Below are positions 5,259-55,930 of a DNA stretch of 64,000 nt, piece after piece; position 1 is the first letter of the stretch; each line of letters starts with the position of its first letter. The notes beneath the pieces are model-generated. The model did not search any database. It saw only the letters and a program-made list of their open reading frames with translations, and had not been told where the DNA came from. Made by a program: the position numbers and the translations under genes. Origin of the DNA: Pollutibacter soli (GTDB lineage: Bacteria; Bacteroidota; Bacteroidia; Chitinophagales; Chitinophagaceae); the NCBI GenBank assembly GCA_029269725.1, contig JARJHS010000001.1, forward strand, positions 806,001 through 870,000, in the 5' to 3' direction.

Positions 5259-6326
5259 ATGGCGATCAACCCCATCCGCACCGCACTGGTTAGTTTTGGA
5301 ATATCTTCTAAAACCTTTCATGCACCCTTTCTTACGACCCAACCGGAATACCAACTGATCCGCGTTGTTGAGCGAAAAACCAAAGAAGCAGAATCAAAAT
5401 ATCCAGGAGTGAGAGTAGTCAATAGTTTTGAGACTCTTCTTGACGATCCCGAAGTGGAGTTGATCGTTATCACGTCACCCAACGAAACTCATTTTCCATA
5501 TGCAAAGGCTTCACTGGAAGCCGGTAAAAATGTGGTGGTAGAAAAACCTTTTACAAATACTTCTGCTGAAGCGAAACAACTGGTAGAGTTGGCAGAACGT
5601 TCGGGAAAGATTTTATCTGTATACCATAACCGCCGTTATGTGGCAGATTTCCGTACAATGCAGGATATCCTGGAGAAAAACTTACTGGGCGAATTGCATG
5701 AATTTGTTTCCCATTACGACCGGTACCGGCCGGATCCCAGAACCATTGGAATCTGGCGGGAGAAAGCAGTACCGGGCAGCGGTGTATTTTATGATTTGGG
5801 TTCTCATCTGATTGATCAGTCGCTTGTTTTATTTGGTCATCCTAAAAATATTTATGCGGATATCCGCAGGCAGAAATCTTATTCGCTTGTTGATGACTAT
5901 TTCGCTGTTGATCTCGATTATGGTTTTCTGAAAGTGACTTTGCATTCTGGAATGCTTATCCGCGAAATGGGTCCGAGATACATGATGCATGGAACAAAAG
6001 GATCTTATATAAAAAGCGGCGAAGATCCGCAGGAGGAAAGATTAAAAGCCGGTGAATTACCAGTTGGAGCCGAGTGGTGCCATGAACCTGAATCACAATA
6101 CGGTATCATTCATACTGAAATCGATGGTAAGGTCGTACGTGAAATATATCCATCATTGAAAGGGGATTTTGGAGATTACTACCGTAATCTCTACCAGGCT
6201 ATTCGCAATGGTGCACCTGTTTCGGAAAAAGCATCACAGGCACATAATGTAATCCGGATAATCGAACTTGCTTTCGAAAGCAGTGAATTAAAAAAGCAAA
6301 TTCCTGTTACAGGACTATTGGGTTAA
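5259..6326 (+). CDS. Gfo/Idh/MocA-family NAD(P)-dependent oxidoreductase
   Basis: This 355-residue protein has the two-domain layout of the Gfo/Idh/MocA family, which oxidises or reduces sugars and inositols with NAD(P). The N-terminal Rossmann region carries a variant dinucleotide loop (VSFGISSKTFHAPFL) typical of the YdgJ/YhhX/IolW branch. The conserved EKP motif lies at residues 95-97 and the catalytic-type D-x-G-S-H-x-x-D-Q motif at about 179-186. The branch points to a scyllo-inositol or sugar dehydrogenase, but the substrate cannot be read from sequence. The gene stands alone, convergent with the glycan operon. Its TAA stop lies inside a heptamer repeat and a palindrome shared with the opposing gene's end. 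Confidence 0.88.
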   Translation: MAINPIRTALVSFGISSKTFHAPFLTTQPEYQLIRVVERKTKEAESKYPGVRVVNSFETLLDDPEVELIVITSPNETHFPYAKASLEAGKNVVVEKPFTNTSAEAKQLVELAERSGKILSVYHNRRYVADFRTMQDILEKNLLGELHEFVSHYDRYRPDPRTIGIWREKAVPGSGVFYDLGSHLIDQSLVLFGHPKNIYADIRRQKSYSLVDDYFAVDLDYGFLKVTLHSGMLIREMGPRYMMHGTKGSYIKSGEDPQEERLKAGELPVGAEWCHEPESQYGIIHTEIDGKVVREIYPSLKGDFGDYYRNLYQAIRNGAPVSEKASQAHNVIRIIELAFESSELKKQIPVTGLLG

Positions 6327-6353
6327 ACGTTGAACTTTCTGCGTTTAACGTAG
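6322..6353. repeat. AACGTTN heptamer tract with palindrome across two stop codons
   Basis: Four 7-bp-phased units (AACGTTG, AACTTTC, TGCGTTT, AACGTAG) run from 6326 to 6353. GTTAAACG at 6322-6329 and CGTTTAAC at 6342-6349 form a perfect 8-bp inverted repeat around a 12-nt loop. The stop of the plus-strand gene (6324-6326) lies in one arm and the stop of the minus-strand gene (6345-6347) in the other. A bidirectional 3'-end signal is plausible; there is no U-tract. Confidence 0.7.
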
Positions 6354-7280
6354 CATAAGTGCAGCTTTGCTCCTCAACCAGATCCACCTGTGCTTTAATT
6401 TTTTATTCCAGCGAAGATGATGGCCAAAATGCTGAAGCAGAGGCCTGCTTATTTCATCGATCATCCTGTAATTTGGAGAAGTTTCTTTTTCCAATGCGGC
6501 AAAAAGATTTTTCAACTGGTGGTATGTGTAAAGATTTATGGTGGCATTTTCTCCTTTGAAATACCGGTTGAGATGAATGCCCGTCATCGCATTAGAGTAG
6601 AGGTTTCTGACACTGCCTTGTCCTGACCAGATGCCTTGGTCATGAATCCGGTACACAGCCATATTATCATTGACGAACCATGCTTCTCCATTGGCAAGCA
6701 GCATTGCAAAAAGAAAAAGATCTTTGAAAAAATCCTGATTGACTGCAACATCATTGTTGATCGCAGATGCACGATACATAACGGAGACTGTCCGCACCAG
6801 GTAGGGTTCAAATAAAGTATCGAGAGTGATTTTTCTGTATTGCTGACCTGGAGTAAAATATTCGGCGCCCCAGGGTTCCATTCTTTTTTCCTTCTGGTAA
6901 TAGTAGTCAACACGATGACAGACAAAACTTAATTCCGGAACTGAATCCAGTAACGCATGTTGTTTATTTAATTTATGGCGGTCTGACCAGTAATCGTCTC
7001 CTTCGCAAATGGCAATATATTCACCGCGACAGGCCTGCATGGTCTGTTTGTGGTTATTCATTGCACCGATGTTTTTGGAATGGCTGATGACCCGGATAAT
7101 ATCTGGATATTTTTCACGATACTCTTCGAGAATGATCGGGGTATTATCCTGTGAGGCATCATCGCCTATAACGATTTCATATGGGAGATCAGTGATCTGC
7201 ATAAGGATACTGTCCAATGCTTCTCTTATAAACGATTGATGATTATAAGCGAGCATCATTACACTGATCACCGGTTTCAT
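6345..7280 (-). CDS. Glycosyltransferase family 2
   Basis: This 311-residue GT-A fold glycosyltransferase presumably transfers a nucleotide-activated sugar during surface polysaccharide or LPS assembly. The N-terminus MKPVISVMMLAYNH is a standard GT2 start, with nucleotide-binding DD at residues 40-41 (VIGDDASQDNT) and a second acidic metal-binding motif at 95-96 (CEGDDYWSD). It has no membrane segment. It is the last gene of a five-gene operon and overlaps the formyltransferase by 4 bp (ATGA), so translational coupling is likely. Being next to an N-formyltransferase, it may add the formylated sugar; this is inference. Its last residues, MLR and stop, are encoded by the heptamer repeat. Confidence 0.88.
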   Translation of the reverse strand: MKPVISVMMLAYNHQSFIREALDSILMQITDLPYEIVIGDDASQDNTPIILEEYREKYPDIIRVISHSKNIGAMNNHKQTMQACRGEYIAICEGDDYWSDRHKLNKQHALLDSVPELSFVCHRVDYYYQKEKRMEPWGAEYFTPGQQYRKITLDTLFEPYLVRTVSVMYRASAINNDVAVNQDFFKDLFLFAMLLANGEAWFVNDNMAVYRIHDQGIWSGQGSVRNLYSNAMTGIHLNRYFKGENATINLYTYHQLKNLFAALEKETSPNYRMIDEISRPLLQHFGHHLRWNKKLKHRWIWLRSKAALMLR

Positions 7281-8143
7281 AAATTGTCTTTTTCGACGCT
7301 GAAGCGAACAATCCCTTCACGGGTTTTTACAAGAATCTTGTTACTGTATTCCAAAAGTAAATCACCTGGTTGATGATTTCTAAAATTATCCAGTATCCAG
7401 CTGTTGTAAATAATGTCGGCCTCAAAAAGTCTCCACCGCTGACCGTGGATTTCGATCGTCACGCCTTGTGTATTTATTCCCACAGATCTTATCTTCTTTA
7501 CGATATCTGCGTCGGAATCCTGATTGAAATCGGGTAAAAACAGAGGGGACCTGCGGTTGAAATAGGTACCTCTCCCCTGTTGTGGATTGCCTGTTATCAT
7601 AAAATTACCGGATTCGAGTAAATCCAGCGCTGATGAAAAAACCGTGCCTTCCAGTTTAAATGACATAAAATAAATCAAACCCTGGTCTATATCGGGTGTA
7701 ATATCAACTTTCTCCTGGTAAATAATATCGCCTTCGTCTGCATGAGCATTCATAAAATGTGTGGTTGCTCCAATGAAATCATAGTCCAGATACAACACTC
7801 CGTTCAACGGAGTTTTTCCCTTCAATTCAGGCAGGTAAGTTGGATGAGTATTGATCAGCAATGCATCCGGAAATGTTGATTTTATTTTTTCCACAGGGAG
7901 AATGAAGGGACATCCATTGGAAATAACCATATCATATCCACCTGCCAGAAGCGCCTTCTCCAGCGCAGCTTTCGAGTTTTCATTTTCAGCAAATTGAAAA
8001 TACGGTACATCAAAATGTGGCAAGTGCCTGTGCAATATACTGTTTTCAGGTACCCACAACTGTTCAAAATGATATTTGCTTTTTCTTGATAGCAGGACCT
8101 GGAAAACCGGAAGACGATTCCCTATAAAAAAGACTCTTTTCAT
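7277..8143 (-). CDS. Formyltransferase, probable sugar N-formyltransferase
   Basis: This 288-residue protein has a formyltransferase core like that of methionyl-tRNA formyltransferase. Visible motifs are N98-x-H100 (INTHPTYLPELKGK), H129 in GATTHF and D136 in ADEGDI, matching the Asn-His-Asp catalytic set that moves a formyl group from 10-formyl-tetrahydrofolate to an amine. The C-terminal third is unlike the tRNA-binding domain. Position between PLP-dependent aminotransferases and a glycosyltransferase suggests N-formylation of a nucleotide-linked amino sugar, as in VioF- or QdtF-type enzymes. It overlaps both neighbours by 4 bp. A housekeeping Fmt role is unlikely because def and other translation genes are absent nearby. 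The substrate is inferred only. Confidence 0.8.
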   Translation of the reverse strand: MKRVFFIGNRLPVFQVLLSRKSKYHFEQLWVPENSILHRHLPHFDVPYFQFAENENSKAALEKALLAGGYDMVISNGCPFILPVEKIKSTFPDALLINTHPTYLPELKGKTPLNGVLYLDYDFIGATTHFMNAHADEGDIIYQEKVDITPDIDQGLIYFMSFKLEGTVFSSALDLLESGNFMITGNPQQGRGTYFNRRSPLFLPDFNQDSDADIVKKIRSVGINTQGVTIEIHGQRWRLFEADIIYNSWILDNFRNHQPGDLLLEYSNKILVKTREGIVRFSVEKDNL

Positions 8144-9087
8144 GCAATCAGTTTGATGATTCGATCCATGTCACTGATATTTAACCGGTGATCTATCGGC
8201 AATGGCAAAAGATATTCTGCAAATCTATATGCCTGACTTTTTTCCGCAGCGTTTGTTCTCAGCTCTGGCCATAACACTGGTATGAAAATCCGATCCTTGA
8301 TCATTTTTTCACGAATTCCTTTTCGGATACTGAGAAAAGGATATGCCATGGGTACTGCATTTACGGGCAATGAAGCAGAGAATTCGTTTTGCTGACCAAT
8401 ATTTTCATGCAAAAACTGATAATTTTCCCTTCGCTTTTTTATAATCCTATTGTAATCCAATGACTGAAGAATTCCGCTGGTTATAGCAGACATCTTTCGC
8501 AGAGGAATATTTCCCATCAGTTGTTCATTAGCCAGGTATTTTTCATATCCTGCTTCAGGAGATTTTTCCAGGCGGTCAAATAAATGCTGAATGCGGGCGG
8601 AAGAATCATCTTCTTCCAGGTACAAATCAGGATCATTAAATGGATAGAGATATGCACCATCAGGAACACCAAAAAATTTTCGCGCTGAATTAAAAGACGA
8701 TGTTCCATTGATGTGTTCTGCAAAAAAGGCCTGCACATTGTCAACAACCAGGTGTTGAAATTTCGCTTTTAATCCGGCAATGTATTCATTTTTTAATCCA
8801 AAATAATTAACTGCCAGGAAAAGACTTTTATCGCCGGGCGTCTGTATCGTGCCCGCGATTTCCATTCTTTCGTTGACTTCATATTTAATTATTCTTACGT
8901 TAAGGTGTTCAGCTTTCTTGCTGAGCACATCGCAGCAATAGTCCGGTAAAAAAATACTCTTGAACTTTCCTGTTCGAAGAAGGTACTCAAGCGCATTTCT
9001 TCCGCTGTTGAGTCGTAGCGCTTTTGAATGCCACTCTTTACCTTGCTGCGGTTCTTCCCATTCGAAATATCCCCCGATTGCTTTCAT
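8140..9087 (-). CDS. Divergent short DegT/DnrJ/EryC1-like PLP enzyme
   Basis: At 315 residues this protein is shorter than typical DegT aminotransferases (about 360-400) and weakly conserved, but it keeps the fold-type I signature. D116 in VVDNVQAFF matches the Asp that contacts the PLP ring nitrogen. K137 in SARKFFGVPDGAYL aligns with the Schiff-base lysine, followed by the usual small-residue segment. It may aminate a keto-sugar, or act on a peptide- or lipid-linked substrate. It overlaps WbqC and the formyltransferase by 4 bp each. A second, canonical DegT enzyme lies in the same operon, so this one may have a distinct substrate. The family call rests on these motifs. Confidence 0.65.
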   Translation of the reverse strand: MKAIGGYFEWEEPQQGKEWHSKALRLNSGRNALEYLLRTGKFKSIFLPDYCCDVLSKKAEHLNVRIIKYEVNERMEIAGTIQTPGDKSLFLAVNYFGLKNEYIAGLKAKFQHLVVDNVQAFFAEHINGTSSFNSARKFFGVPDGAYLYPFNDPDLYLEEDDSSARIQHLFDRLEKSPEAGYEKYLANEQLMGNIPLRKMSAITSGILQSLDYNRIIKKRRENYQFLHENIGQQNEFSASLPVNAVPMAYPFLSIRKGIREKMIKDRIFIPVLWPELRTNAAEKSQAYRFAEYLLPLPIDHRLNISDMDRIIKLIA

Positions 9088-9788
9088 ACCAGTTCATAAT
9101 TGAGTAACATCCCGTTGATTTCTTCGGAAGTGTTGTGCATTAAAACATCAATAATGGAAAGTGACGGCGTCCAGGCTTTGTTGAATTGCTGGTATTGTGT
9201 AAGTTTTGATTGGATAAAGAACAATTCAAGTCCTGCTTTTCTGAAATCTTCTTTGCTGTACAGGTCCGTACCGCCCATCGGATTGATATAGACTTCAGCA
9301 TTTAATTGTTTGCAGATATCAAGCACTCTTTCCTGCGCATGCAAATGATCATTCTGAAACGATTCCACTTGCAGGAATTCCGGTAATGGAATATTCAGGT
9401 AGTCAAGAACTTTCATTACAGAAATTTCAGCAAGGGTTCCGATTGTGCCAGTTGACTCATTGATCACCGCATTTATCAATGGAAAAACATCCCTGAAATT
9501 TATTGCCTTTTTATAATTCTGTTCAATTGTTTTTAACCAGGTGTTTTTCCATCTGGAAAAACTCAAAGTGTGAATTTTTGTATCCCTGATCGATCTGAAA
9601 GAACTGATCTGTTCAACAGGAACTGTAAATAAAGATGGTTCTCCGTTGACCAAAATACGATTACGGTTGATCCATCCCTGCTTAATAAACGCAACATCAT
9701 TATAAAAGACAAACTTATCGACTGCACAGATATACTGGAAATATCCGATGTAAGGAAAAAAGTATGGTTGCATGATTCCAACCTTCAT
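9084..9788 (-). CDS. WbqC-like family protein
   Basis: The N-terminus (MKVGIMQPYFFPYIGYFQY) and the segment FYNDVAFIKQGWINRNRI are hallmarks of the WbqC-like family, found in O-antigen and capsule clusters of many bacteria. The biochemical role of the family is not settled; an acyl- or amide-transfer step on sugar intermediates has been suggested by context. The protein is 234 residues, the usual length, and soluble. The gene sits 2 bp after the DegT aminotransferase and overlaps the next gene by 4 bp, which suggests these products act on the same intermediate. Confidence 0.85.
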   Translation of the reverse strand: MKVGIMQPYFFPYIGYFQYICAVDKFVFYNDVAFIKQGWINRNRILVNGEPSLFTVPVEQISSFRSIRDTKIHTLSFSRWKNTWLKTIEQNYKKAINFRDVFPLINAVINESTGTIGTLAEISVMKVLDYLNIPLPEFLQVESFQNDHLHAQERVLDICKQLNAEVYINPMGGTDLYSKEDFRKAGLELFFIQSKLTQYQQFNKAWTPSLSIIDVLMHNTSEEINGMLLNYELV

Positions 9789-9790
9789 CT

Positions 9791-10870
9791 TCAGTTCCTC
9801 CAGGATTTACGAATGATTGATGTAATTCGTTCAATCTCTTTTTCTGTCAATGAAAAATATAATGGAAGACAAAGTATGCGCCTACTGATGTCTTCTGAAA
9901 CAGGAGCAGGATTACCCTTGACAAATTTTAGTCTGTTTAGCGATGGTGCAAAATAACGGCGCGTGAACACATTTTCTACCTGGAGAGCATTGAATGTTTT
10001 CAGCAAAATTTCTTCCGTAGGAAAAATTACTGGATAGTAGGCGTAGTTGTATTCGCAGTCGGGATTGATGGTTTGGGTTTGCAAAGGTATTCCGCTCAAC
10101 TGTACATCATAGTATATCGAAAGTGCTTTCAATCTACCCAGTATCTCATCGGCATAAGGAAGATTTGCCAGGCCAAAAGCCGCATGCAGTTCAGAATTCT
10201 TTCCATTGATACCTACATCTTCAAATATTCCCGGACCATTGTGTCCGAAATTTCTATGAAATTCCATCTTCGCATTCAGGTCCGGGTTATTGGTAATTAC
10301 CGCACCACCTTCTGCAGTATTGAACAGTTTTGTAGCGTGAAAACTTGCTGTAGAAATATCTCCGGATTTAAAAACCGATTCGCCTTTGTATTTTGTTCCA
10401 AAGCAATGCGCTCCGTCATAAATCACGCGGAGACTGTGTCTGTCCGCAATTTCCTGTATCGCATCAATATCACATGAATTACCAAATACATGCGCCGGCA
10501 ATATTGCTGTGGTTTCGGGAGTGATCAGTTTTTCTATCGTCGATGGATCCATATTAAATGTAAATGGATCAATATCGGCAAATACTGGTGTACAATGTTG
10601 CCAAAGAATCGAAGATGTTGTAGCAACATAACTGAAAGGAGTGGTGATAATCTCTCCTTCCAGTTCAAGAGCCCTGATCGCAATCTGGATGGCGATTGTT
10701 CCATTTGATGTTACCAATAAATGTGGAACATCCAGCTTTTCTTTCAGTTTGGTTTCCAGTTGTACAAGCAGCGGACCATTATTGGTTAGCCAGTTATTGT
10801 CGTATACCTGTTTCACGTAACCGAAAAATTCTTCGATCGGCGGAAAAAAAGGTTTGGTTACTGTGATCAT
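9791..10870 (-). CDS. DegT/DnrJ/EryC1/StrS aminotransferase
   Basis: This 359-residue PLP-dependent enzyme of the sugar aminotransferase family would transfer an amino group to a nucleotide-linked keto-sugar. D152 in YDGAHCFG is the PLP-ring aspartate and K181 in SFHATKLFNTAEGGA is the Schiff-base lysine. The N-terminal segment NNWLTNNGPLLVQLE matches family members that make 3- or 4-amino-dideoxy sugars. It is the first gene of the tightly packed five-gene set, about 90 bp after an upstream glycosyltransferase. The nucleotide-sugar dehydratase that would supply the keto-sugar is not in the window, so it must be encoded elsewhere. Confidence 0.92.
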   Translation of the reverse strand: MITVTKPFFPPIEEFFGYVKQVYDNNWLTNNGPLLVQLETKLKEKLDVPHLLVTSNGTIAIQIAIRALELEGEIITTPFSYVATTSSILWQHCTPVFADIDPFTFNMDPSTIEKLITPETTAILPAHVFGNSCDIDAIQEIADRHSLRVIYDGAHCFGTKYKGESVFKSGDISTASFHATKLFNTAEGGAVITNNPDLNAKMEFHRNFGHNGPGIFEDVGINGKNSELHAAFGLANLPYADEILGRLKALSIYYDVQLSGIPLQTQTINPDCEYNYAYYPVIFPTEEILLKTFNALQVENVFTRRYFAPSLNRLKFVKGNPAPVSEDISRRILCLPLYFSLTEKEIERITSIIRKSWRN

Positions 10871-10960
10871 ATTTTCAAATCTAAGGTATTGGTGAATGCA
10901 GTAATTCAGTACAAATCGACTGTCGCTGGCAATGATACGCTCTTTTGTTGTGGCGTTGCA

Positions 10961-11929: not shown

Positions 11930-12006
11930 TCCGTAAAATTAAAACAAGAACAGATGCCGAGTTGTGAAAGTCATTAACAGATTGTTGAAATGAACTGAAC
12001 TGCGTT

Positions 12007-12771: not shown

Positions 12772-12772
12772 T

Positions 12773-13894
12773 ATGAGTGACTATATCAGCAGTATTGATG
12801 TTGTGATTCCGTCGTTTCGAATGAACCCGGAATATATACTTCCGATGCTGGCCATGGATATTCCTCCCCAGGTGAAGACTACATTTATACTTGTTAAAGA
12901 TCAACCGGGGCCCGTTCCCGACTCGATAAGGTATGCCAGGGGAAATTTTGAACTGGTAGTTCTTGTGAATGACCGGAATCTTGGATCTGCCGCTACGCGT
13001 AACCGTGGTATGGAAGCCGGTCATGGAGACTGGGTGCTTTTTCTCGACGATGACATCCGGGTGGAAAAAAACCTGCTCAGTATTTATATGGACGCTGCAC
13101 TGAACCAGCCGGAAGAAATTGGGTTTATCGGTCTGATCGAATTGCCGCCGGCTCCCACTGCATTTGCTGCTGCCCAGTTAGCGAGTGGTGCCGTTGATAT
13201 TTTCTTTATTTCGAAACACAAAACTTCTTTTGCATGGGCAGCAACTGCAAGTTTCATGGTCAGAAGGTCGGCAGTAAAAAATATCCGTTACTCAACAATC
13301 ATTCCCAAGACCGGCGGTGGCGAAGATGTAGATTTTTGTTTTAAAATCCGCGAAAATAATGGCTTCAAAAATTTCAAAACATTACCCGAAGCAAAAGCCT
13401 GGCATCCCTGGTGGAACGATGGGAAACCGGATCTGTATAAACCCTTCCGTTATGGGATTGGCAACAGTTGGCTTGTTCAGCTCAATCCTAAAAATACTTA
13501 CCGCGATTTTTTTAACACGCCAGAAACGATTCTAATAATACTCATTGCCCTGTGCCTTTCAATTATAATCAAACCATCTTGGGTACCCGTTATTTTGTTG
13601 TTCACTGCCATGTCGATCATCATTGAATTTCTAGCCAACCTGGCACAGGTTCAAAAACGACAACCTGGTGCATCACTCGCCGTCATCTTGTACACAACAC
13701 TCATGCGACTGGCGCAGGAAACCGGTGTGGTATGGGGAAAAATAAAACGAGGCAGATTTGATCAGCTTGGCCTGCGTTTTCACTATGATGGAGCCATAAA
13801 CAAATCAGGTTTTTACAAGACGAATACCTATCGGATTGTGAAGTGGATCTTGTATCCGCTCGCGATGCTGGCAGCCATTTACGTTCAACGTTAA
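12773..13894 (+). CDS. Membrane-associated glycosyltransferase family 2
   Basis: This 373-residue protein has a GT2 domain in the first 230 residues (VVIPSFR, AATRNRGME, FLDDDIRVE with DDD at 92-94). A GGGEDVDFCFKI motif follows around residue 180. The C-terminal part has hydrophobic segments at about 245-265, 268-290 and 350-370, so it is probably anchored in the inner membrane. It directly follows the previous glycosyltransferase. The final residues YVQR and the TAA stop are encoded within a heptamer repeat tract, so the natural C-terminus may have been altered by repeat insertion. Confidence 0.87.
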   Translation: MSDYISSIDVVIPSFRMNPEYILPMLAMDIPPQVKTTFILVKDQPGPVPDSIRYARGNFELVVLVNDRNLGSAATRNRGMEAGHGDWVLFLDDDIRVEKNLLSIYMDAALNQPEEIGFIGLIELPPAPTAFAAAQLASGAVDIFFISKHKTSFAWAATASFMVRRSAVKNIRYSTIIPKTGGGEDVDFCFKIRENNGFKNFKTLPEAKAWHPWWNDGKPDLYKPFRYGIGNSWLVQLNPKNTYRDFFNTPETILIILIALCLSIIIKPSWVPVILLFTAMSIIIEFLANLAQVQKRQPGASLAVILYTTLMRLAQETGVVWGKIKRGRFDQLGLRFHYDGAINKSGFYKTNTYRIVKWILYPLAMLAAIYVQR

Positions 13895-13914
13895 AAGTGG
13901 AACGTAAAACGCCG
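13880..13914. repeat. AACGTTN heptamer tract at 3' end of glycosyltransferase gene
   Basis: Five units in exact 7-bp phase: TACGTTC, AACGTTA, AAAGTGG, AACGTAA, AACGCCG. The first two units encode the last residues and TAA stop (13892-13894) of the upstream gene. The tract ends in AACGC, a boundary seen in most of the other tracts. Confidence 0.75.
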
Positions 13915-14005: not shown

Positions 14006-14040
14006 AACGTTTAACGTTCAACGTTATACGTTTTACGTTC
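14006..14040. repeat. AACGTTN heptamer tract next to a stop codon
   Basis: Five exact heptamers: AACGTTT, AACGTTC, AACGTTA, TACGTTT, TACGTTC. The minus-strand glycosyltransferase gene stops (TAG) at 14044-14046, three bases beyond. With the tract at 13880 it brackets the 149-bp gap between two convergent genes. Confidence 0.78.
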
Positions 14041-14043
14041 AAT

Positions 14044-32650: not shown

Positions 32651-32685
32651 GGTTTAAAGTATAATGTTGAAGGTTAAAAGTAAAG
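32651..32685. repeat. Related 7-bp tract (core NGTTNAA)
   Basis: GGTTTAA, AGTATAA, TGTTGAA, GGTTAAA, AGTAAAG follow in exact 7-bp phase. It lies between the terminator hairpin and the xylA stop. The core is a degenerate version of the AACGTTN unit. Confidence 0.5.
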
Positions 32686-35575: not shown

Positions 35576-35610
35576 TACGTTTAACGTTCAACGTTCAACG
35601 TTATACGCCG
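35576..35610. repeat. AACGTTN heptamer tract encoding the GalT C-terminus
   Basis: Five units in phase: TACGTTT, AACGTTC, AACGTTC, AACGTTA, TACGCCG. On the minus strand they encode the last residues of GalT (ITLNVER) and its TAA at 35581-35583. The tract ends in ACGC like most of the others. Confidence 0.78.
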
Positions 35611-42972: not shown

Positions 42973-43000
42973 TTATTTTTGAAACTTATTCTATTTAACT

Positions 43001-44143: not shown

Positions 44144-45121
44144 ATGGCATCATTAATCAGGAATGACTGGACCCTCAACGAAATAAAAGATATCTATAAT
44201 ACTCCCCTGCTTGAACTCGTGTATCGTGCTGCTACTGTGCATCGCGAATACCAGGAAAGTAATGAGGTGCAGGTCTGTACGCTGCTATCCGTGAAAACCG
44301 GCGGATGTTCAGAAGACTGCGCTTATTGTCCCCAGGCAGCTCGATATCATACTGGTGTAAACGTGCATGCATTAATGCAGACTGATGAAGTTATTTCTTA
44401 TGCCAGAAAAGCTGCTGAAGCAGGATCAACACGGTTTTGTATGGGCGCTGCCTGGAGAGAGGTTCGCGACAATCGTGATTTCGATAGAGTGATTGAATTT
44501 GTGAAAGAGGTGAATAAGCTTGGAATGGAAGTTTGCTGTACTCTTGGTATGCTGACTGAAAACCAGGCACAACGACTCGCTGATGCTGGATTGTACGCAT
44601 ACAATCATAACCTTGATACCTCTGACGAATACTATTCTGAGATTATCACTACCCGCACTTATGATGATCGTTTGAAAACATTAGATAATGTGCGCAAAGC
44701 AGGTGTTTCCGTTTGCTGTGGCGGAATTGTAGGTTTAGGCGAAACGCATGAAGACCGCATCAAAATGCTGCATACGCTGAGTACAATGGCGGAACATCCC
44801 GAATCAGTTCCGGTCAATGCACTCGTGGCAGTAAAAGGAACACCGCTGGAAAACCAGGGCAAAGTAAATATCTGGGATATGGTCAGGATGATTGCGACTG
44901 CGAGGATCCTTATGCCTGGAGCGATGGTACGCCTAAGCGCAGGCAGAACAGAGATGAGTTTGTCAGACCAGGCGCTTTGTTTTATGGCAGGAGCCAACTC
45001 CATATTCGCCGGTGATAAATTGTTGACTACGCCCAATCCATCTTTTGACGATGACCATTCGATGTTTGAATTGTTTGGATTGAAACCCAGGGCGGCGTTT
45101 AAGGAAACCATGCACGTTTAA
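44144..45121 (+). CDS. bioB: Biotin synthase
   Basis: This 325-residue radical SAM enzyme inserts sulfur into dethiobiotin. The [4Fe-4S] cluster cysteines are C55, C59 and C62 in [12 protein letters not shown]. Other conserved parts are [36 protein letters not shown]-type sequence, [22 protein letters not shown] and [10 protein letters not shown] (Arg ligand of the [2Fe-2S] cluster). The other bio genes are not here. The last residues HV and the TAA stop lie in a heptamer repeat tract. Confidence 0.97.
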
Positions 45122-45147
45122 CGTATAACGTTGAACGTTAAACGCAG
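45113..45147. repeat. AACGTTN heptamer tract with 10-bp palindrome after bioB
   Basis: Five units: CACGTTT, AACGTAT, AACGTTG, AACGTTA, AACGCAG. CGTTTAACGT (45115-45124) pairs perfectly with ACGTTAAACG (45135-45144) around a 10-nt loop, so a hairpin can form at the bioB stop (45119-45121). Confidence 0.8.
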
Positions 45148-45376: not shown

Positions 45377-45432
45377 AACGTTTTACGTTCAGCATTCAAC
45401 GTTTAACGTTTAACGTTCACCGTTCAACGCTA
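45377..45432. repeat. AACGTTN heptamer tract, eight units, encoding the Lon C-terminus
   Basis: Eight consecutive units in exact phase: AACGTTT, TACGTTC, AGCATTC, AACGTTT, AACGTTT, AACGTTC, ACCGTTC, AACGCTA. The minus strand encodes the end of Lon (ALNGER) with TAA at 45410-45412. This is the longest tract in the window. Confidence 0.82.
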
Positions 45433-48304: not shown

Positions 48305-48309
48305 TTTTT

Positions 48310-48912: not shown

Positions 48913-48993
48913 GTTCGTTGATTTCAGTTATAACGCAACAACTGCCAGAATACAGGAAAAAATCGTTCCAATTATTTGTTAAACAGGCAATTG

Positions 48994-49971
48994 TTAAAAC
49001 ATATACGCTGCTGTGAGCGAAAAAATATTACTGAACGGACGATCAGTTTCGGGGAAATAATAGCTGATAAAATAATTTGGTGTAAGGGAAAATCCACCTA
49101 TGAAATAGGAAACACTGAGTGCGAAAGCTGCCGACTGAATTCTCAAACCGGTATTCTCCTGATCTGAAGAAATATAGTTTCTGCTGATGGTCACAAATTT
49201 GCGTGAACTGGTTAATCTTTTACTTGAGCTGACGTCGAAGTGCTGTGCGCCTGCCACCAACATGAGCTGAGGGATTACGGAAAGTCCATCTATCGGTTTA
49301 AACAATCCGTTCCACTCGAACGGGTGAGACACAGAAGCGGTAAAGGAAAAATCCTGGAGGCCGACAGTGGTGGTATCGGTTATGCTTCGGGGTATGGTAA
49401 AAATAACCGTATCCAGCCGACGTACTTCTACATACTGTCCCTTTCCCCATCCGATGGAGAAACCGCTGCGTAGCCAGCCTTTTCTCGTTTGTATATAGCC
49501 GAATAATTCATGACTGAAGGGCGTAGCATATTGTTCAAGCTTTTTTTCTTTGAGATAATAGGAATATGAAATTCCGAAAGCAATTGCTTTTCCTTTCAGA
49601 TAATCATATGAGGGAGTAAAAGCATATTGATAGAATTGCGACTTGCCATCCAGTTTGCTGAAATAGGCAGTCGCGTTCATACCGAATCCGGAATGATGAT
49701 AATAAAAAACCGATGGTGTTATTGCAAGTCGGTTCTCTGGCTGCTGAGCATTAAAATTGTTGTTCTTCAGACTGAATAACCGGTTGCCACCAGAGATACT
49801 TACAGAGAAAAAATTTGTTTTGTTGCTGATGGAATCAAGCATGGCTTTGAAATCTTTCAGAAGATCCATGTCCAGTTCAATTGAATCCTTAGTCGCCGAT
49901 AAACTATCTGTTTGAGAGAAGACGGATATATTCAAACCCATCATCACCACGAGTAAAGCGACCATTTTCAT
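48994..49971 (-). CDS. Predicted outer-membrane barrel protein, unknown function
   Basis: This 325-residue protein has a signal peptide ending SVFSQ, a short acidic linker (LDMDLLKDFKAMLDSI), then at least ten alternating amphipathic strands rich in Tyr, Phe and Ser (NRLAITPSVFYYHHSGFGM, AFALSVSYFIGGFSLTP) ending in TAAYMF, a barrel-type C-terminal aromatic. I do not recognise a named family. It follows the phosphoesterase gene by 89 bp. Confidence 0.68.
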   Translation of the reverse strand: MKMVALLVVMMGLNISVFSQTDSLSATKDSIELDMDLLKDFKAMLDSISNKTNFFSVSISGGNRLFSLKNNNFNAQQPENRLAITPSVFYYHHSGFGMNATAYFSKLDGKSQFYQYAFTPSYDYLKGKAIAFGISYSYYLKEKKLEQYATPFSHELFGYIQTRKGWLRSGFSIGWGKGQYVEVRRLDTVIFTIPRSITDTTTVGLQDFSFTASVSHPFEWNGLFKPIDGLSVIPQLMLVAGAQHFDVSSSKRLTSSRKFVTISRNYISSDQENTGLRIQSAAFALSVSYFIGGFSLTPNYFISYYFPETDRPFSNIFSLTAAYMF

Positions 49972-50060
49972 AAGTTTCCCTGCAGTTTTCAGAGCCTCAG
50001 ACGGGCGGTAACTACCGGGGTTTAACGGCAGTAAAAATTTATTATTGGATGAAGTGCCGG

Positions 50061-51308: not shown

Positions 51309-51455
51309 AAAATGTTAGTTGTCTTTGATTGGAGGGCTGAACTATTGTGGATATATTGTTCCCTAAAATGGTGCCGATAGCGTAATTTTGTCAACCTGTC
51401 AGGACGAGCAGAAAAACCTGCTCTGTATCGTATGATCTGCGACTGTACAGTGCGA

Positions 51456-51463
51456 TATCTTTG
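51456..51463 (+). promoter_or_regulatory. Candidate -7 box (TATCTTTG)
   Basis: TATCTTTG matches TAnnTTTG and lies 30 bp before the ATG at 51494, which supports that start over an upstream TTG at 51461 that would fall inside the box. No TTTG at the -33 position. Confidence 0.4.
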
Positions 51464-51493
51464 TTAGCCAACATTTTAAGGAAGTTCAACGGA

Positions 51494-52174
51494 ATGCGAT
51501 TTATATATTACGGACATGCCTGTTTTGCGCTGGAGATTGGAGGTAAGCACCTTCTGTTTGACCCTTTCATCTCACCGAATGAACTGGCGAAAGCGATAGA
51601 TCCTCAGACGGTTCCGGCTGATTTCATCCTGATTTCCCATGCACATTTTGATCACCTTGCTGATGCGGAAGCAATTGCTAAACGCACCGATGCCACGATC
51701 ATTACCAATTGGGAAATTTATGAATATTTCAAAAAGAAAGGATTTGAAAAGATCTTTCCGATGAATGTCGGCGGTAAAGCAGACTTTGATTTCGGAACAC
51801 TTAAATGTGTGATTGCTCAGCATTCTTCCAGTTTTCCTGATGGGAGCTACGGGGGTACGGCGATGGGCTTTGTGATAAAATCGCAGGAGGGAAATCTTTA
51901 TTATAGTGGAGACACCGGATTAAGTCTTGACATGCAACTGATACCTTCATTTGCAGTGTTGAATTACGCTGTTATGCCGATTGGCGATGTTATCACGATG
52001 GGTATCGAAGATGCAGTGAGAGCAGCACATATGCTCAGTTGCCACAAAGTAATTGGTGTACATTATAACACCTGGGGGACGATAGAGCTCGATAAGGACA
52101 AGGCATTTGAATTGTTCAATCGTAACGGACTTGAATTAATCCTCCCGGAAATTGGAAGCGGGATGGATCTTTAA
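51494..52174 (+). CDS. Metal-dependent hydrolase of the metallo-beta-lactamase fold (UlaG/YtkL-like)
   Basis: This 226-residue protein (from ATG 51494; an upstream TTG at 51461 would add 11 residues) carries the metallo-beta-lactamase signature SHAHFDHLADAE (HxHxDH), YSGDTGLS and a late HYNTW with a His ligand. The UPF0173 (YtkL-like) branch fits: YYGHACFALE near the start and DPFISPN. The substrate is unknown; members act on phosphodiesters or lactones. It is 27 bp before parA on the same strand. Confidence 0.88.
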   Translation: MRFIYYGHACFALEIGGKHLLFDPFISPNELAKAIDPQTVPADFILISHAHFDHLADAEAIAKRTDATIITNWEIYEYFKKKGFEKIFPMNVGGKADFDFGTLKCVIAQHSSSFPDGSYGGTAMGFVIKSQEGNLYYSGDTGLSLDMQLIPSFAVLNYAVMPIGDVITMGIEDAVRAAHMLSCHKVIGVHYNTWGTIELDKDKAFELFNRNGLELILPEIGSGMDL

Positions 52175-52201
52175 AAATTTATCTGAAAATATTTCGAATA
52201 C

Positions 52202-53014
52202 ATGGGGCGAATTATAGGCATCGCAAATCAAAAAGGTGGGGTCGGAAAAACGACTACAGCGATCAATCTCGCTGCCAGTCTGGCTGTGCTGGAGTATAAA
52301 ACATTGCTTGTAGATGCCGATCCTCAGGCCAACAGTACAACTGGTGTTGGTTTTGACTTGCATAATATTCAGCAGAGTCTTTACGATTGCATGATCAATG
52401 ATGTAAAGGCCCGCGAAGTGGTTCTTAAAACAGAAATCCCACATCTCTTTGTTATCCCTTCACATATCGACCTCGTAGGTGCCGAGATTGAAATGATCAG
52501 TCATCCGCAAAGGGAATCTGTACTTAAGGGAATTCTTGGTGACGTAAAAGATGAATACGATTTCATCATCATTGACTGTTCTCCTTCCCTGGGTCTGATC
52601 ACGGTAAATGCGCTTGTTGCTTCAGATAGCGTATGCGTACCCGTACAGGCGGAGTTTTTCGCATTGGAAGGTTTAGGGAAATTATTGAATACAATCAAAA
52701 TAGTACAGTCGAGACTAAATACGGAGCTGGTAATTGAAGGAATTTTAATGACGATGTATGACGGCCGTCTTCGGTTATGCAACCAGGTGGTAAATGAAGT
52801 ACGCAGGCATTTTGAAGAAATGGTTTTTGATACGATCATACATAGAAATACGAGGCTGAGTGAAGCTCCTAGTGTGGGTAAACCAGCTATTCTTTATGAT
52901 GCAGACAGCAAGGGTGCGATCAATTACCTTAACCTTGCAAAGGAAATTCTGCAGAAGAATAACATGACCCGGATAAAGCAATCAGAAAGAATTTTAACGC
53001 TGAATGATGAGTAG
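52202..53014 (+). CDS. parA: ParA-family chromosome partitioning ATPase (Soj-like)
   Basis: This 270-residue Walker-type ATPase has the deviant Walker A NQKGGVGKTTT at residues 8-18, switch I and II regions (LVDADPQANST, IDCSPSLGLITVNAL) and family ends (NTRLSEAPSVGKPAIL). It drives chromosome origin segregation together with ParB on parS. parA and parB overlap by 11 bp, so translation is coupled. In Bacteroidota the chromosomal copy usually precedes parB, the DUF5683 gene and dapB as here. Confidence 0.95.
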   Translation: MGRIIGIANQKGGVGKTTTAINLAASLAVLEYKTLLVDADPQANSTTGVGFDLHNIQQSLYDCMINDVKAREVVLKTEIPHLFVIPSHIDLVGAEIEMISHPQRESVLKGILGDVKDEYDFIIIDCSPSLGLITVNALVASDSVCVPVQAEFFALEGLGKLLNTIKIVQSRLNTELVIEGILMTMYDGRLRLCNQVVNEVRRHFEEMVFDTIIHRNTRLSEAPSVGKPAILYDADSKGAINYLNLAKEILQKNNMTRIKQSERILTLNDE

Positions 53015-53927
53015 TAACCCGACGAATAAGAAGGATGCGCTCGGTAAAGGTATCAGGTCATTGCTGCAAAGCATAGATACTGATCTTAAAACCCCTGCCG
53101 GAGCGCTTAAGGAAGAAGTAGTACAGAAAACGTTGGGCATGAGCCGCGTTCCCCTGGAAGAAATAGATACCAACCCCAAACAGCCAAGGCAGGATTTTGA
53201 TGAAACTGCATTGAAGGAATTGGCTGCATCCATAAAACTGCATGATATTATTCAACCGCTTACCGTAGTAAAAACTGCGGGTGGCCGTTACCGCCTGGTT
53301 GCAGGTGAAAGACGTTTGCGTGCAGCAAAACTTGCAGGCCTCAAGGATGCGCCGGTGTATATCCGTGAAGCCAATGATCAACAATTACTGGAACTCGCTT
53401 TACTGGAGAACCTCCAGCGCCAGGATCTCAACGCAATTGAAATCGGGTTGAGTTATAAGCGACTCATGGACGAGCTTAATTTCACACAGGAACAGGTGGC
53501 GGAGCGCATGGGTAAGGAAAGAAGTACGGTGACCAACTACATCAGGTTGCTGAAATTACCTCCGGGAATAATTGTTGCGGTTCGTAATGGAAGTCTGAGC
53601 ATGGGTCATGCGAGAGCGATCATTAATGTAGACGAAGTTGAAAAACAATTATATGTTTTTCATGAAATACAAAATAAAGGATTGTCAGTAAGGCAAACAG
53701 AACAATTGGTGCGCAATCTTTACCAGGATGGAAAGCCTGTTAAAAAAACCGTAAAACCCACGCTGGCACCGGCTTTCAAAAAAATTGAAGATAATTTAGC
53801 TTCTCATTTCAGCACGAGAGTTAAACTCGTTCACCAGAAAAAGGGGCATGGTCAGATTCTGTTCGATTACTATTCGCTCGAAGAACTGAATGCCCTTCTC
53901 GAAAAGATGAAGGTAACCGTCAACTGA
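53004..53927 (+). CDS. parB: ParB-family chromosome partitioning protein (Spo0J-like)
   Basis: This 307-residue DNA-binding clamp has an N-terminal domain with CTP-binding and parS loops (VAGERRLRAAKLAGL, LALLENLQRQDLNAIE), a central helix-turn-helix (EQVAERMGKERSTVTNYIRLLKLP, given in parts: ERMGKERSTVTNYIRLL) and a C-terminal dimerisation region with a Lys-rich linker. It loads at parS sites and is cleared by ParA. No complete parS (TGTTTCACGTGAAACA) was found in the window. Starts at 53004 and 53007 are both ATG. Confidence 0.95.
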   Translation: MMSSNPTNKKDALGKGIRSLLQSIDTDLKTPAGALKEEVVQKTLGMSRVPLEEIDTNPKQPRQDFDETALKELAASIKLHDIIQPLTVVKTAGGRYRLVAGERRLRAAKLAGLKDAPVYIREANDQQLLELALLENLQRQDLNAIEIGLSYKRLMDELNFTQEQVAERMGKERSTVTNYIRLLKLPPGIIVAVRNGSLSMGHARAIINVDEVEKQLYVFHEIQNKGLSVRQTEQLVRNLYQDGKPVKKTVKPTLAPAFKKIEDNLASHFSTRVKLVHQKKGHGQILFDYYSLEELNALLEKMKVTVN

Positions 53928-53929
53928 TC

Positions 53930-54622
53930 ATGTTCAGCAAATTTCTCTTTCGTTGTCTACTGCTGATTTTATTTGCATCCCTCGGAACCATCAGCCTGAA
54001 AGCACAGGTGATTCCATTGGATACGCTGGCTGTTATTGCAACGACTGACTCGCTGAAAAAAAATGTAAAGACTCCGGATTCTCTCCGGTTCCGTGGTGAC
54101 ACGATCATCAGTTCAAAAATCGATACGGCTAAAAAAAGATCACCGGCTTCCAAAGCGGCACTGCGATCTGCTATTATCCCTGGCTGGGGACAGGCGTACA
54201 ACAAAAAATACTGGAAGATCCCGATTGTCTACGGTGCGCTTGCAGTGCCCGTGGTAACATTCACTTATAACCTGAACTGGTACCAGAAAACGCGATATGC
54301 ATATACCGTAAAGTATACAAAAGATACTGCCAACTTCTCCAATATTGATCCTCAATTGCAACCTTTATCTACAGAATCTCTGCGGGTATACCGGGATGAC
54401 TTCAGAAGAAATATGGATTATTCGGTGATTGCTTTTCTGATCCTCTGGGGGCTGAACGTTGTAGATGCTGCCGTGGATGGTCACCTTAAAGATTTTAACG
54501 TAAACGATGATCTCTCCATCAGGATAAAACCCGGCTACTCTCCTATGGCCAATACCAACGGGCTAAGTATCGTACTGAATATCGGGAAAAGACCTGGTAA
54601 TGGATATTCTGCCGGTCGCTGA
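53930..54622 (+). CDS. DUF5683-domain protein
   Basis: This 230-residue protein has a signal or anchor segment (FLFRCLLLILFASLGTISLKAQ), a Ser/Lys-rich linker, then the DUF5683 core: SAIIPGWGQAYNKKYWKIP, a membrane helix (YGALAVPVVTFTYNLNW) and a second one (YSVIAFLILWGLNVVDAAVDGHL). It is a conserved envelope protein that follows parB in many Bacteroidota; the function is not established. It starts 2 bp after the parB stop. Confidence 0.88.
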   Translation: MFSKFLFRCLLLILFASLGTISLKAQVIPLDTLAVIATTDSLKKNVKTPDSLRFRGDTIISSKIDTAKKRSPASKAALRSAIIPGWGQAYNKKYWKIPIVYGALAVPVVTFTYNLNWYQKTRYAYTVKYTKDTANFSNIDPQLQPLSTESLRVYRDDFRRNMDYSVIAFLILWGLNVVDAAVDGHLKDFNVNDDLSIRIKPGYSPMANTNGLSIVLNIGKRPGNGYSAGR

Positions 54623-54672
54623 TTTCTTTTTTCTTTGTTACTTTCACGCTTCAAAAAAATAAGGTTGACAGT

Positions 54673-55389
54673 ATGAATATTGCGTTGATCGGCTATGGGA
54701 AAATGGGCAAAACCATTGAATCGGTTGCGATTTCCAGGGGGCATAGAATATCTCACAAAATTGATCTTGATAATCCTGAAGCCTGGGACAATCTCTCTCC
54801 GGAAAACACCGACGTGGCAATAGAATTCACCGGGCCACACAGCGCTTTTGAGAACGTGAAAAAATGCATCGAAAAATCGGTGCCGCTCGTTTGTGGTTCG
54901 ACAGGCTGGCTTGATAAGTTTGATGAAATTGTCAATCTCACAAAAAAGCTCGATGGAAGCTTTTTATATGCAAGTAATTTCAGTGTTGGCGTTAATATAT
55001 TTTTTGAATTGAATAAGAAGCTTGCGCAACTGATGGCTTCTCATCCGGAGTATGATGTTTCATTAAAAGAAGTACATCATACGCAGAAAAAAGATGCCCC
55101 CAGCGGAACGGCCATTACCCTGGCTGAAGAAGTTTTGGCGAATATCAGAAGCAAAAAATACTGGGTTAATCGCGATACTGAAAATCCGGATGAGCTATCA
55201 GTCACGAGCGAACGAATTGATCCTGCCCCGGGCACTCATCATATCCGGTACCACTCGGCGATTGATGATATCGAGATCATACACACTGCTCACAGTCGCA
55301 ACGGATTTGCTCTCGGTGCTGTGCTGGCCGCTGAGTTTCTGCCTGGGAAAAAAGGAGTTTTTGGGATGAAGGAAGTATTAGGAATCTGA
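54673..55389 (+). CDS. dapB: 4-hydroxy-tetrahydrodipicolinate reductase
   Basis: This 238-residue enzyme of lysine and diaminopimelate synthesis reduces dihydrodipicolinate precursors with NAD(P)H. It has the dinucleotide loop IGYGKMGKTIE, FTGPHSAFENV, CGSTGW, ASNFSVGVN and the catalytic EVHHTQKKDAPSGTAITLAE, with the His-His-Lys substrate site. Length is slightly below E. coli DapB (273) but normal for Bacteroidota. It is 50 bp after the DUF5683 gene. The TGA stop is followed directly by a heptamer tract. Confidence 0.95.
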   Translation: MNIALIGYGKMGKTIESVAISRGHRISHKIDLDNPEAWDNLSPENTDVAIEFTGPHSAFENVKKCIEKSVPLVCGSTGWLDKFDEIVNLTKKLDGSFLYASNFSVGVNIFFELNKKLAQLMASHPEYDVSLKEVHHTQKKDAPSGTAITLAEEVLANIRSKKYWVNRDTENPDELSVTSERIDPAPGTHHIRYHSAIDDIEIIHTAHSRNGFALGAVLAAEFLPGKKGVFGMKEVLGI

Positions 55390-55436
55390 CGTTAAACGTA
55401 TAACGTTGAACGTATAACGTTGAACGTTTAACATAA
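55388..55436. repeat. AACGTTN heptamer tract, seven units, after dapB
   Basis: Seven units in exact phase: GACGTTA, AACGTAT, AACGTTG, AACGTAT, AACGTTG, AACGTTT, AACATAA. Units two to five repeat as a 14-bp super-unit (AACGTATAACGTTG), which also occurs in the tract after bioB. It begins at the dapB stop codon. Confidence 0.82.
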
Positions 55437-55475
55437 AAAACGTAATTTGTCCGATAATAACATAGGGAAAACTTC

Positions 55476-55886
55476 ATGCTGAATAAAAAGACCCAATACG
55501 CATTTAAAGCGCTGATGTATATCGCGGAACATCAGAATGACGGGCCTATTCTTATCTCCGAGATTGCGAAAAAGAAAAATATTCCACTCAAATTCCTGGA
55601 GAATATCCTTCTTGAACTAAAGAATGATGGTATTCTCGACAGCAAAAAAGGGAAAGGCGGCGGATATTTTCTGAAACTTCCCCCATCAAAAATTCCACTC
55701 GCACGCATCATACGCAAAATCGACGGACCGATTGCGATGCTTCCCTGTGTGAGCCTTTACTTCTACGAACGCTGCAAAAACTGCGATGAGAAAAATTGCG
55801 GTCTTCACGATACAATGCTTCTCGTACGTGATGCTGAACTGAAGATACTGGAGAAGAAGACGGTGGCTGATCTGGCGAAAAAGTAA
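55476..55886 (+). CDS. Rrf2-family transcriptional regulator
   Basis: This 136-residue winged-helix protein begins MLNKKTQYAFKALMYIAEH. The HTH region is PILISEIAKKKNIPLKFLE and a wing KKGKGGGYFL follows. Four cysteines lie at 91, 100, 103 and 108; IscR uses three (92, 98, 104) for a [2Fe-2S] cluster, so cluster sensing is plausible. It may regulate sulfur or iron genes, or a redox response. It lies between heptamer tracts, and stands alone between dapB and the sensor kinase gene. Confidence 0.9.
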   Translation: MLNKKTQYAFKALMYIAEHQNDGPILISEIAKKKNIPLKFLENILLELKNDGILDSKKGKGGGYFLKLPPSKIPLARIIRKIDGPIAMLPCVSLYFYERCKNCDEKNCGLHDTMLLVRDAELKILEKKTVADLAKK

Positions 55887-55888
55887 TT

Positions 55889-55930
55889 CACGTAGAACGT
55901 TTCACGTTCTACGTTTAACGTTCAACGCAT
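55889..55930. repeat. AACGTTN heptamer tract with strong 11-bp hairpin
   Basis: Six units: CACGTAG, AACGTTT, CACGTTC, TACGTTT, AACGTTC, AACGCAT. ACGTAGAACGT (55890-55900) and ACGTTCTACGT (55904-55914) form a perfect 11-bp stem with a 3-nt loop directly after the Rrf2 stop (55884-55886). Confidence 0.82.

What the first reader, a model, noticed from the sequence alone, without database searches (positions are those of the whole stretch)
6326..55930. Dispersed family of exact 7-bp-phased AACGTTN arrays at gene ends
Eight tracts (6326-6353, 13880-13914, 14006-14040, 35576-35610, 45113-45147, 45377-45432, 55388-55436, 55889-55930) consist of 4-8 consecutive units of (A/T/C)ACGTTN in strict 7-bp phase. 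All eight lie on or within a few bases of a stop codon, on both strands. None lies inside a gene body. This non-random placement is seen directly. The closest described analogue I know is the heptameric STRR sequences of cyanobacteria; I know of no described Bacteroidota equivalent.
Basis: partly seen in the sequence, partly recalled or inferred. Interest (0 to 1): 0.75.

Follow-up and report, generated by a model that had tools for sequence, protein, structure and literature searches.

The report
Heptamer repeat arrays marking gene ends
A Bacteroidota bacterium carries many short arrays of a seven-letter repeat that tend to begin at the stop codon of genes and to point the same way as the gene, a gene-end variant of a known repeat type whose function is still unproved.

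Summary
All eight tracts are real and lie on, or within 4 bases of, a stop codon. On contig C1 (1.175 Mb, 19% of the genome) a 7-bp profile finds 93 arrays (reversed-sequence control: 1). The stop lies inside or within 10 bp of 61 of 93, against 8.5 for random intergenic placement and 27.4 for random placement in the same interval. Divergent junctions hold 3 of 93.

Two things change the reading. First, the unit is an oriented heptamer, AACGT(T/A)(A/G) on the gene's sense strand (49 arrays sense-like, 16 antisense-like), not a symmetric palindrome in its constraint. Most units can carry a stop codon and a 7-base step moves the frame by one, so arrays tend to close all three sense frames. Second, this is a known kind: heptamers at stop codons are published in Xanthomonas/Nostoc, and heptamer repeats in Bacteroidetes.

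Most likely it is a sense-strand gene-end punctuation element. A tolerated, fast-turning repeat is the main rival: only 1 of 11 array-bearing ortholog ends is shared with the closest array-bearing relative, and about a third of arrays are not at a stop.

The parts
6322..6351 (-). array between convergent genes; touches the stop of the + oxidoreductase gene (5259-6326) and the stop of the - glycosyltransferase gene (6345-7280)
   Evidence: 33.8 bits
13881..13911 (+). array containing the stop (13894) of a + glycosyltransferase-like gene; first of a pair in a convergent junction
   Evidence: 36.7 bits
14005..14042 (-). array at the stop (14044) of a - glycosyltransferase gene; second of the pair
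   Evidence: 50.0 bits
   Evidence: 23.5 bits; one search also lists a period-7 tract here
32652..32684 (+). weaker array, not near a stop, orientation opposite to both flanking genes; a counter-example
   Evidence: 29.2 bits
35572..35607 (-). array containing the stop (35581) of the - galactose-1-phosphate uridylyltransferase-like gene
   Evidence: 48.9 bits
45114..45144 (+). array containing the TAA stop (45121) of a biotin-synthase-like gene; first of a pair in a convergent junction
   Evidence: 42.7 bits
45376..45429 (-). array containing the stop (45410) of the - Lon protease gene; second of the pair
   Evidence: 64.6 bits
55389..55438 (+). array starting at the stop (55389) of the dihydrodipicolinate-reductase gene
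   Evidence: 61.5 bits
55890..55927 (-). array 3 bp after the stop (55886) of the + Rrf2-family gene; best-scoring orientation is antisense to that gene, so an exception to the orientation rule
   Evidence: 46.8 bits

Best explanation
The arrays are an oriented heptameric tandem-repeat family whose unit, read on the sense strand of the gene it ends, is AACGT(T/A)(A/G). A typical array starts at the gene's stop codon and runs some 20-70 bp downstream. SHOWN: stop anchoring of about two thirds of arrays, prevailing sense orientation, more stop codons on the sense than the antisense strand, all three frames closed sooner after the gene end than at other genes, stronger folding in sense than in antisense, near-absence from divergent junctions. 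INFERRED: it works on the mRNA as gene-end punctuation. Because the step is 7 and most units can carry TAA, TGA or TAG, a ribosome that reads through or slips meets a stop within a few units; the ACGT palindromes let the same stretch fold and may help end or protect the transcript where a U-tract terminator is missing.
For: Stop inside or <=10 bp from 61 of 93 arrays; null of 30 draws 8.5 (max 15) for random intergenic and 27.4 (max 34) for the same interval. Over the 73 arrays within 40 bp of a stop the median 5' edge is 1 base before the end of the stop codon, quartiles -8 and +3. Junctions: 44 convergent, 46 tandem, 3 divergent, against 34, 104 and 52 kb of intergenic DNA. Orientation, leave-one-out: 49 sense, 16 antisense of 65 scored. 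Spacer base in sense A138 G122 T89 C41; ordinary 3' flanks G 0.189, C 0.181. Stop codons in the 73 arrays: 312 sense, 181 antisense; all three frames closed in 34 of 73 sense against 9 of 73 antisense (the sense count includes the gene's own stop where it lies in the array). All frames closed within 40 nt: 27 of 57 array genes, 106 of 793 others (these arrays were picked as sense-oriented). Sense RNA folds better than antisense in 51 of 73 (p 9e-5); other gene ends 427 against 341 of 777. U-tract hairpins within 100 nt: array genes 3 of 63, other transcript ends 94 of 526, operon-internal 7 of 110. Twelve of 147 convergent junctions carry two arrays, in 11 of 12 one within 16 bp of each stop; about 3.4 doubles expected if stops were independent (my arithmetic).
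Against: Not all arrays obey: 32 of 93 are more than 10 bp from a stop; in the oriented scan 59 of 120 are sense and 11 antisense at stops and 50 are not near a stop (control 12). Turnover: of 43 orthologous gene ends shared with G033 (median 83% protein identity) 1 has an array in both, 5 only in G033 (two of these ends share one array), 5 only here. In G033 the G-over-C spacer bias is not significant. Unit order within arrays is not more palindromic than shuffled order (mean z -0.23, p 0.46, n 30), and G-U-compatible changes are not favoured (38 against 35), so hairpin pairing is not the main constraint. The high conservation of G at position 4 is not explained by stop codons. The terminator deficit is weak: the array fills part of the searched stretch, tandem genes alone give p 0.33 (convergent 0.0099), and ordinary ends exceed their antisense control only by 94 to 57 of 526. 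Nine tandem junctions also hold two or more arrays, so doubles are not peculiar to convergent ends. A published survey found no selection for extra stop codons in bacteria in general (PMC6764699, search listing only). No expression data.
Confidence: 0.4

Rival explanations
1. Tolerated tandem repeats. A general heptamer-making process scatters 7-bp arrays; those that land at gene ends in the orientation with stop codons do little harm and survive, the rest are lost.
For: The genome has a strict 7-bp habit: 59 arrays of period 7 on C1 against 0-3 for each other period from 4 to 13, in many unit families; named relatives' loci show many others. Fast turnover. Of 36 same-genus genomes tested two match the pattern, one of them with a different fixed unit. 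MacGregor makes the same coding-tolerance argument for TAACTGA (PMC4679880 section 9). A good part of the arrays is not at a stop.
Against: Tolerance alone does not put arrays at the stop rather than elsewhere in the same interval (61 against 27.4). By one common detector 16 of 33 arrays of this family but 5 of 26 other 7-periodic arrays are within 10 bp of a stop; the AACGAAC family has 2 of 11 within 30 bp, this one 29 of 36. The antisense strand of an array also carries stops (181), so the filter would be weak. Neighbouring spacer bases are no more alike than shuffled ones (74 against 76.5), so there is no sign of fresh slippage.
Confidence: 0.33
2. Binding sites for a protein that reads the oriented heptamer, in DNA or in the mRNA 3' end, in the manner of REP/BIME elements or TRAP-like repeats (TRAP recalled), with a function in supercoiling, mRNA decay or 3' processing.
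For: Constraint is sequence-specific and one-stranded: position 3 (C) changed in 63 of 315 sense units, its mirror position 4 (G) in 14 (p 1e-8). Paired arrays in convergent junctions. Preferred GGTT before and (A/G)GCC-like bases after the array.
Against: No candidate protein found; the only family searched, Y1_Tnp (linked to REPs), is in G000 and G033 but also in 8 of the 10 other genus genomes checked. Few sites are shared between species.
Confidence: 0.17
3. An intrinsic transcription terminator family without a U-tract: the palindromic units form the terminator hairpin.
For: Array regions fold more strongly than ordinary gene ends (mean -13.8 against -8.3 kcal/mol; sequence lengths differ). 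Array genes lack U-tract hairpins. Some arrays fold as long near-perfect hairpins (C1 48337, 289173). Some arrays in a distant order lie in longer palindromes near predicted stops.
Against: No consistent U-tract follows. Stem pairing is not conserved. Convergent junctions often carry two oriented arrays where one symmetric hairpin would serve.
Confidence: 0.1

Closest known systems
GGGAATC / GGGGA(C/T)T heptamer repeats of Xanthomonas and Nostoc (PMC4692102)
   Same: heptamer, preference for four units, intergenic, overlapping or within 50 bp of stop codons on the coding strand, under-represented between divergent genes, no function found
   Different: [quoted passage not shown] here the unit is AACGT(T/A)(A/G), can carry stop codons, has no G-tract, and sites turn over
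TAACTGA heptamer repeats of Beggiatoaceae, Cyanobacteria and five Bacteroidetes (PMC4679880)
   Same: 7-nt phased, oriented, stop-carrying in forward orientation, patchy across phyla
   Different: mostly just upstream of start codons in the main species; defined by one fixed unit; here at stop codons with one free base
cyanobacterial STRRs (recalled; STRR typing seen only in a search listing)
   Same: heptameric tandem arrays dispersed in intergenic DNA
   Different: different units; no stop-codon anchoring known to me
REP / BIME elements (PMC3733652, passages read)
   Same: short palindromic, mostly between convergent and tandem genes, sometimes supplying the stop codon, G-T pairs in stems
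   Different: REPs are palindromes with a GTAG or CGTC tag, often linked to RAYT transposases; here a tandem heptamer with GGTT at the edge and no specific transposase link

Membership tests
heptameric tandem repeat (STRR-like kind) | 7-bp tandem units repeated at many dispersed intergenic places | tested here: met
   93 arrays on C1, reversed control 1; none at 22 bits or more lies over 60 bp inside a gene
heptameric tandem repeat (STRR-like kind) | one of the published cyanobacterial unit sequences | not tested
   the unit AACGT(T/A)(A/G) is not one I recall from cyanobacteria; no cyanobacterial search was run
[quoted passage not shown]
   for most arrays (65 of 93 within 20 bp; 59 sense to 11 antisense)
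Xanthomonas/Nostoc gene-end heptamers | G-tracts able to form quadruplexes | tested here: not met
   unit has no G-tract (unit frequencies)
TAACTGA repeats | unit TAACTGA | tested here: not met
   unit frequencies
REP/BIME | GTAG or CGTC tag at one end of a 20-40 bp palindrome | tested here: not met
   edge preference is GGTT on the 5' side (G33, G38, T47, T36 of 73); no direct search for the tags
REP/BIME | association with a RAYT (Y1_Tnp) transposase | tested here: inconclusive
   Y1_Tnp in G000 and G033 but also in 8 of 10 others; flanks of the transposase genes not examined
Rho-independent terminator | hairpin followed by a U-tract | tested here: not met
   hairpin with U-tract at 3 of 63 array gene ends
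Rho-independent terminator | transcripts end there | not testable with these tools
   no RNA data held
MITE | conserved core with terminal inverted repeats in several copies | tested here: not met
   the 12 stretches between paired arrays share no long sequence with each other or the rest of C1 (one 36-bp hit, E 0.003); single arrays not tested this way
Rfam families | match to a curated RNA family in the window | tested here: not met
   0 matches at gathering score

The most novel reading that the evidence does not exclude
A dedicated gene-end punctuation system: an oriented heptamer that, by having a period of 7 and a stop codon in most units, closes all three reading frames directly after the gene, and at the same time marks or ends the transcript. 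61 of 850 gene ends on C1 (7%) carry one in sense, and the same unit recurs near predicted gene ends in a distant high-GC order of the phylum (10 of 21 arrays).
Probability: 0.3. Interest if true: 0.75.

Novelty: new variant of a known kind. Interest (0 to 1): 0.5.

Why it matters
Heptamers were the commonest class of long simple repeat in most repeat-rich bacterial genomes of a 2007 survey (as told in PMC4679880, section 3), and what makes them or what they do is open. Here one genome holds several heptamer families side by side, and the one studied is fixed to stop codons and oriented with the gene far more than the others; this gives an internal control and a concrete, testable idea (all-frame stops and transcript ends). 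It would also be an exception to the published view that bacteria show no selection for back-up stop codons (PMC6764699, listing only).

Tried and rejected
Perfect-hairpin selection: permuting unit order and testing G-U-compatible changes gave nothing, although a few long arrays are striking palindromes. A WC+GU pairing test of spacer bases in sense was only marginal (96 against 90.4, 3.5% of shuffles; WC alone 20%).

Restriction-site avoidance: AACGTT outside the 36 strict arrays is as frequent as expected (263 against 251). These remaining hexamers are enriched at stops (30 within 20 bp, 7.7 expected), but some belong to weaker arrays.

Mobile element with a core between paired arrays: the cores share no long sequence. 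RAYT/REP link: not specific. Rfam: no match.

A second 'palindromic' family, TTGCAAN, seen in control columns: on listing most are repeats of a fixed unit such as TTGCAGG or TTGCAAG, some with a varying base; not pursued.

Clean empty sites: intergenic DNA between G000 and G033 is too diverged to show insertion boundaries.

Distant order: 10 of 21 arrays listed lie within 20 bp of a predicted stop; ORF calls there are rough (differs for some), no null was run, and two of the ten are copies of one longer repeat.

Limits: gene calls are my own (836 genes, re-trained to 850); C1 is 19% of the genome; three of the 73 near-stop arrays belong to the AACGAAC-like family and were removed only. Arrays (36; 93; 20 bits or more; 120) come from different thresholds or profiles. 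Of the G033 contigs, the 38 labelled 'unbiased' were chosen after leaving out contigs with strict matches, so they are biased against arrays; they and the 18 array-chosen contigs together give 15 of 34 arrays within 10 bp of a stop, about 3 expected. In one search arrays of G033 were taken at 22 bits and those of C1 at 18.
Full report
WHAT IS THERE. The eight tracts are at the stated places and are the only ones that a mechanical search finds in the window (8, against a mean of 0.03 in 100 Markov shuffles). They lie at the ends of ordinary genes: Gfo/Idh oxidoreductase, glycosyltransferases, GalT, biotin synthase, Lon, DapB and an Rrf2 regulator. The window lies in G000, contig C1, positions 806001-870000 of a 6.1-Mb genome. 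The best named DapB relatives are at 61-67% identity and mostly labelled Chitinophagaceae or its genera (first 20 of the 80 kept), so I take the host to be of or near that family; its own name is not shown.

GENOME SCALE. ACGTTNNACGTTNNACGTT has 590 matches in the genome and its mirror image none. I took contig C1 in stretches and called 850 genes. A strict search gave 36 arrays: 29 have their centre within 30 bp of a stop, against 40 of 720 random intergenic placements; a second heptamer family of the same genome, AACGAAC, has 2 of 11. A 7-position profile gave 93 arrays at 22 bits or more, reversed sequence 1, Markov sequence 0. The stop is inside 45 and inside or within 10 bp of 61 of 93; the null is 8.5 (max 15 in 30 draws) over all intergenic DNA and 27.4 (max 34) when each array is moved within its own interval. 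32 of 93 arrays are farther than 10 bp from a stop. Divergent junctions hold 3 arrays in 52 kb, convergent ones 44 in 34 kb, tandem ones 46 in 104 kb.

ORIENTATION. The profile used for detection was made symmetric, yet the arrays are not. In the 73 arrays within 40 bp of a stop the spacer base in sense is A138 G122 T89 C41, while ordinary 3' flanks have G 0.189 and C 0.181. After removing 3 arrays of the other family, position 3 (C) is changed in 63 of 315 units and its mirror, position 4 (G), in 14; T6 to A occurs 92 times and its mirror 23. A leave-one-out test arrays sense and 16 antisense (p 5e-5). A scan with the oriented profile finds 120 arrays at 20 bits (reversed control 12): 59 sense and 11 antisense at stops, 50 not near a stop. 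The sense unit is AACGT(T/A)(A/G). The 5' edge often reads stop codon, then G(G)TTN, then units; the 3' edge tends to (A/G)GCC. In the window 8 of the 9 arrays at stops point with their gene; the one after the Rrf2 gene does not.

STOP CODONS. In sense T-(A/G)-A, TA-(A/G) or T-AA can arise wherever position 6 is T or A and the spacer is not C, which is so in 279 of 331 units (from the pair counts), and the 7-base step changes the frame by one. Arrays hold 312 stops in sense and 181 in antisense; all three frames are closed in 34 of 73 sense and 9 of 73 antisense (the sense figure includes the gene's own stop where it is in the array). Within 40 nt of the gene's stop all three frames are closed in 27 of 57 genes with a sense array and 106 of 793 others. 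Stop-codon choice of array genes is that of the genome (TAA 35, TGA 22, TAG 16 against 402, 263, 185).

FOLDING AND TERMINATION. Sense RNA of the array region folds better than antisense in 51 of 73 cases; other gene ends 427 against 341. But unit order is not selected for perfect stems, and changes that would keep G-U pairs are not favoured, so I do not take the hairpin as the main constraint. Hairpins with a U-tract are found at 3 of 63 array gene ends, 94 of 526 other transcript ends and 7 of 110 operon-internal ends; the antisense control gives 2 of 63 and 57 of 526. Array ends look terminator-poor, but the array fills part of the searched stretch, the excess at ordinary ends over control is modest, and the tandem subset alone is not significant. 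Twelve of 147 convergent junctions have two arrays, in 11 of 12 one near each stop, and 21 have one; independence would give about 3.4 doubles by my arithmetic; nine tandem junctions also have two or more arrays.

EVOLUTION. In 60 genomes (own plus 59 relatives) the pattern occurs in 3: the own one, G033 and, with a fixed different unit ACGTTAG, G036. In G033 15 of 34 arrays on 56 contigs are within 10 bp of a stop (about 3 expected), with no significant G-over-C bias. Of 43 orthologous ends 1 has an array in both, 5 only in G033, 5 only here. Over the phylum 7 of 395 sampled genomes match the stricter AACGTTNAACGTTNAACGTT, own included; in the order of G093 11 of 114; in the own order 1 of 298 sampled, the own genome (G033 was not in that sample). 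In those distant genomes 10 of 21 arrays lie within 20 bp of a predicted stop (rough ORFs, no null).

WIDER HABIT. C1 has 59 arrays of period 7 and 0-3 of any other period from 4 to 13 (28 of period 14, the harmonic); 33 overlap the AACGTT family, 16 of them within 10 bp of a stop, and 26 are of other units such as GTAGTAA, AACTAAG and TTCATAG, 5 of them within 10 bp of a stop; none is inside a gene. DapB loci of named relatives also show many heptamers. So a heptamer-making process is general and the stop-anchored family is one product of it.

WHAT IS KNOWN. Heptamers at stop codons on the coding strand are described in Xanthomonas and Nostoc, with no function found (PMC4692102; sections 13, 15, 16 and passages read). 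TAACTGA heptamers, stop-carrying in forward orientation, are described in Beggiatoaceae, Cyanobacteria and five Bacteroidetes (PMC4679880; abstract and sections 3, 9, 10, 24 read). REPs prefer the same junctions and may supply stops (PMC3733652; passages). A survey finds no general selection for extra stops in bacteria (PMC6764699; listing only). I saw no report of an AACGTT heptamer in Bacteroidota in the listings, which cover only an open-access library.

VERDICT. It is a new variant of a known kind. I give 0.4 to a sense-strand gene-end punctuation function, 0.33 to a tolerated fast-turning repeat, 0.17 to a protein-binding array and 0.1 to a U-less terminator hairpin.

Noticed in passing
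G000 contig C1, whole: Tandem repeats in this genome are almost only heptameric (59 of period 7 against 0-3 for each period 4-6 and 8-13), in many unit families; several units share AAC in the same phase (AACTAAG, AACTATG, AACGAAC, AACGTTR, and published TAACTGA read as AACTGAT).
   Followed up: partly
G000 C1: 11 AACGAAC arrays, e.g. 49386-49427, 67012-67053, 435080-435107: A second oriented heptamer family, mostly not at stops; 6 of the 7 arrays in + orientation lie 0-77 bp before a + gene start, one directly abutting an ATG, while the 4 in - orientation show no such pattern.
   Followed up: partly
L040, L049, L058, L098 (named Bacteroidota loci): Long heptamer arrays of other units (GTGAATA, GTGAGTG, CACTCAC, TTGCCTA, GCTGGTT) in relatives of the host.
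   Followed up: no
L322, L325, L326 (G093 and G241): Nearly the same stretch of about 70 bp around a short AACGTT array occurs in two distant genomes, suggesting a mobile or conserved element that contains the array.
   Followed up: no
L196 (G033 contig C80), 281-314, 465-498, 3228-3268: Three arrays with the same flanks but 5, 5 and 6 units on one contig, a possible case of recent duplication with unit-number change.
   Followed up: no
G015 and G036 (same genus): Fixed-unit heptamers TTGCAGG and ACGTTAG at several places, so the repeated unit differs from species to species in this genus.
   Followed up: no
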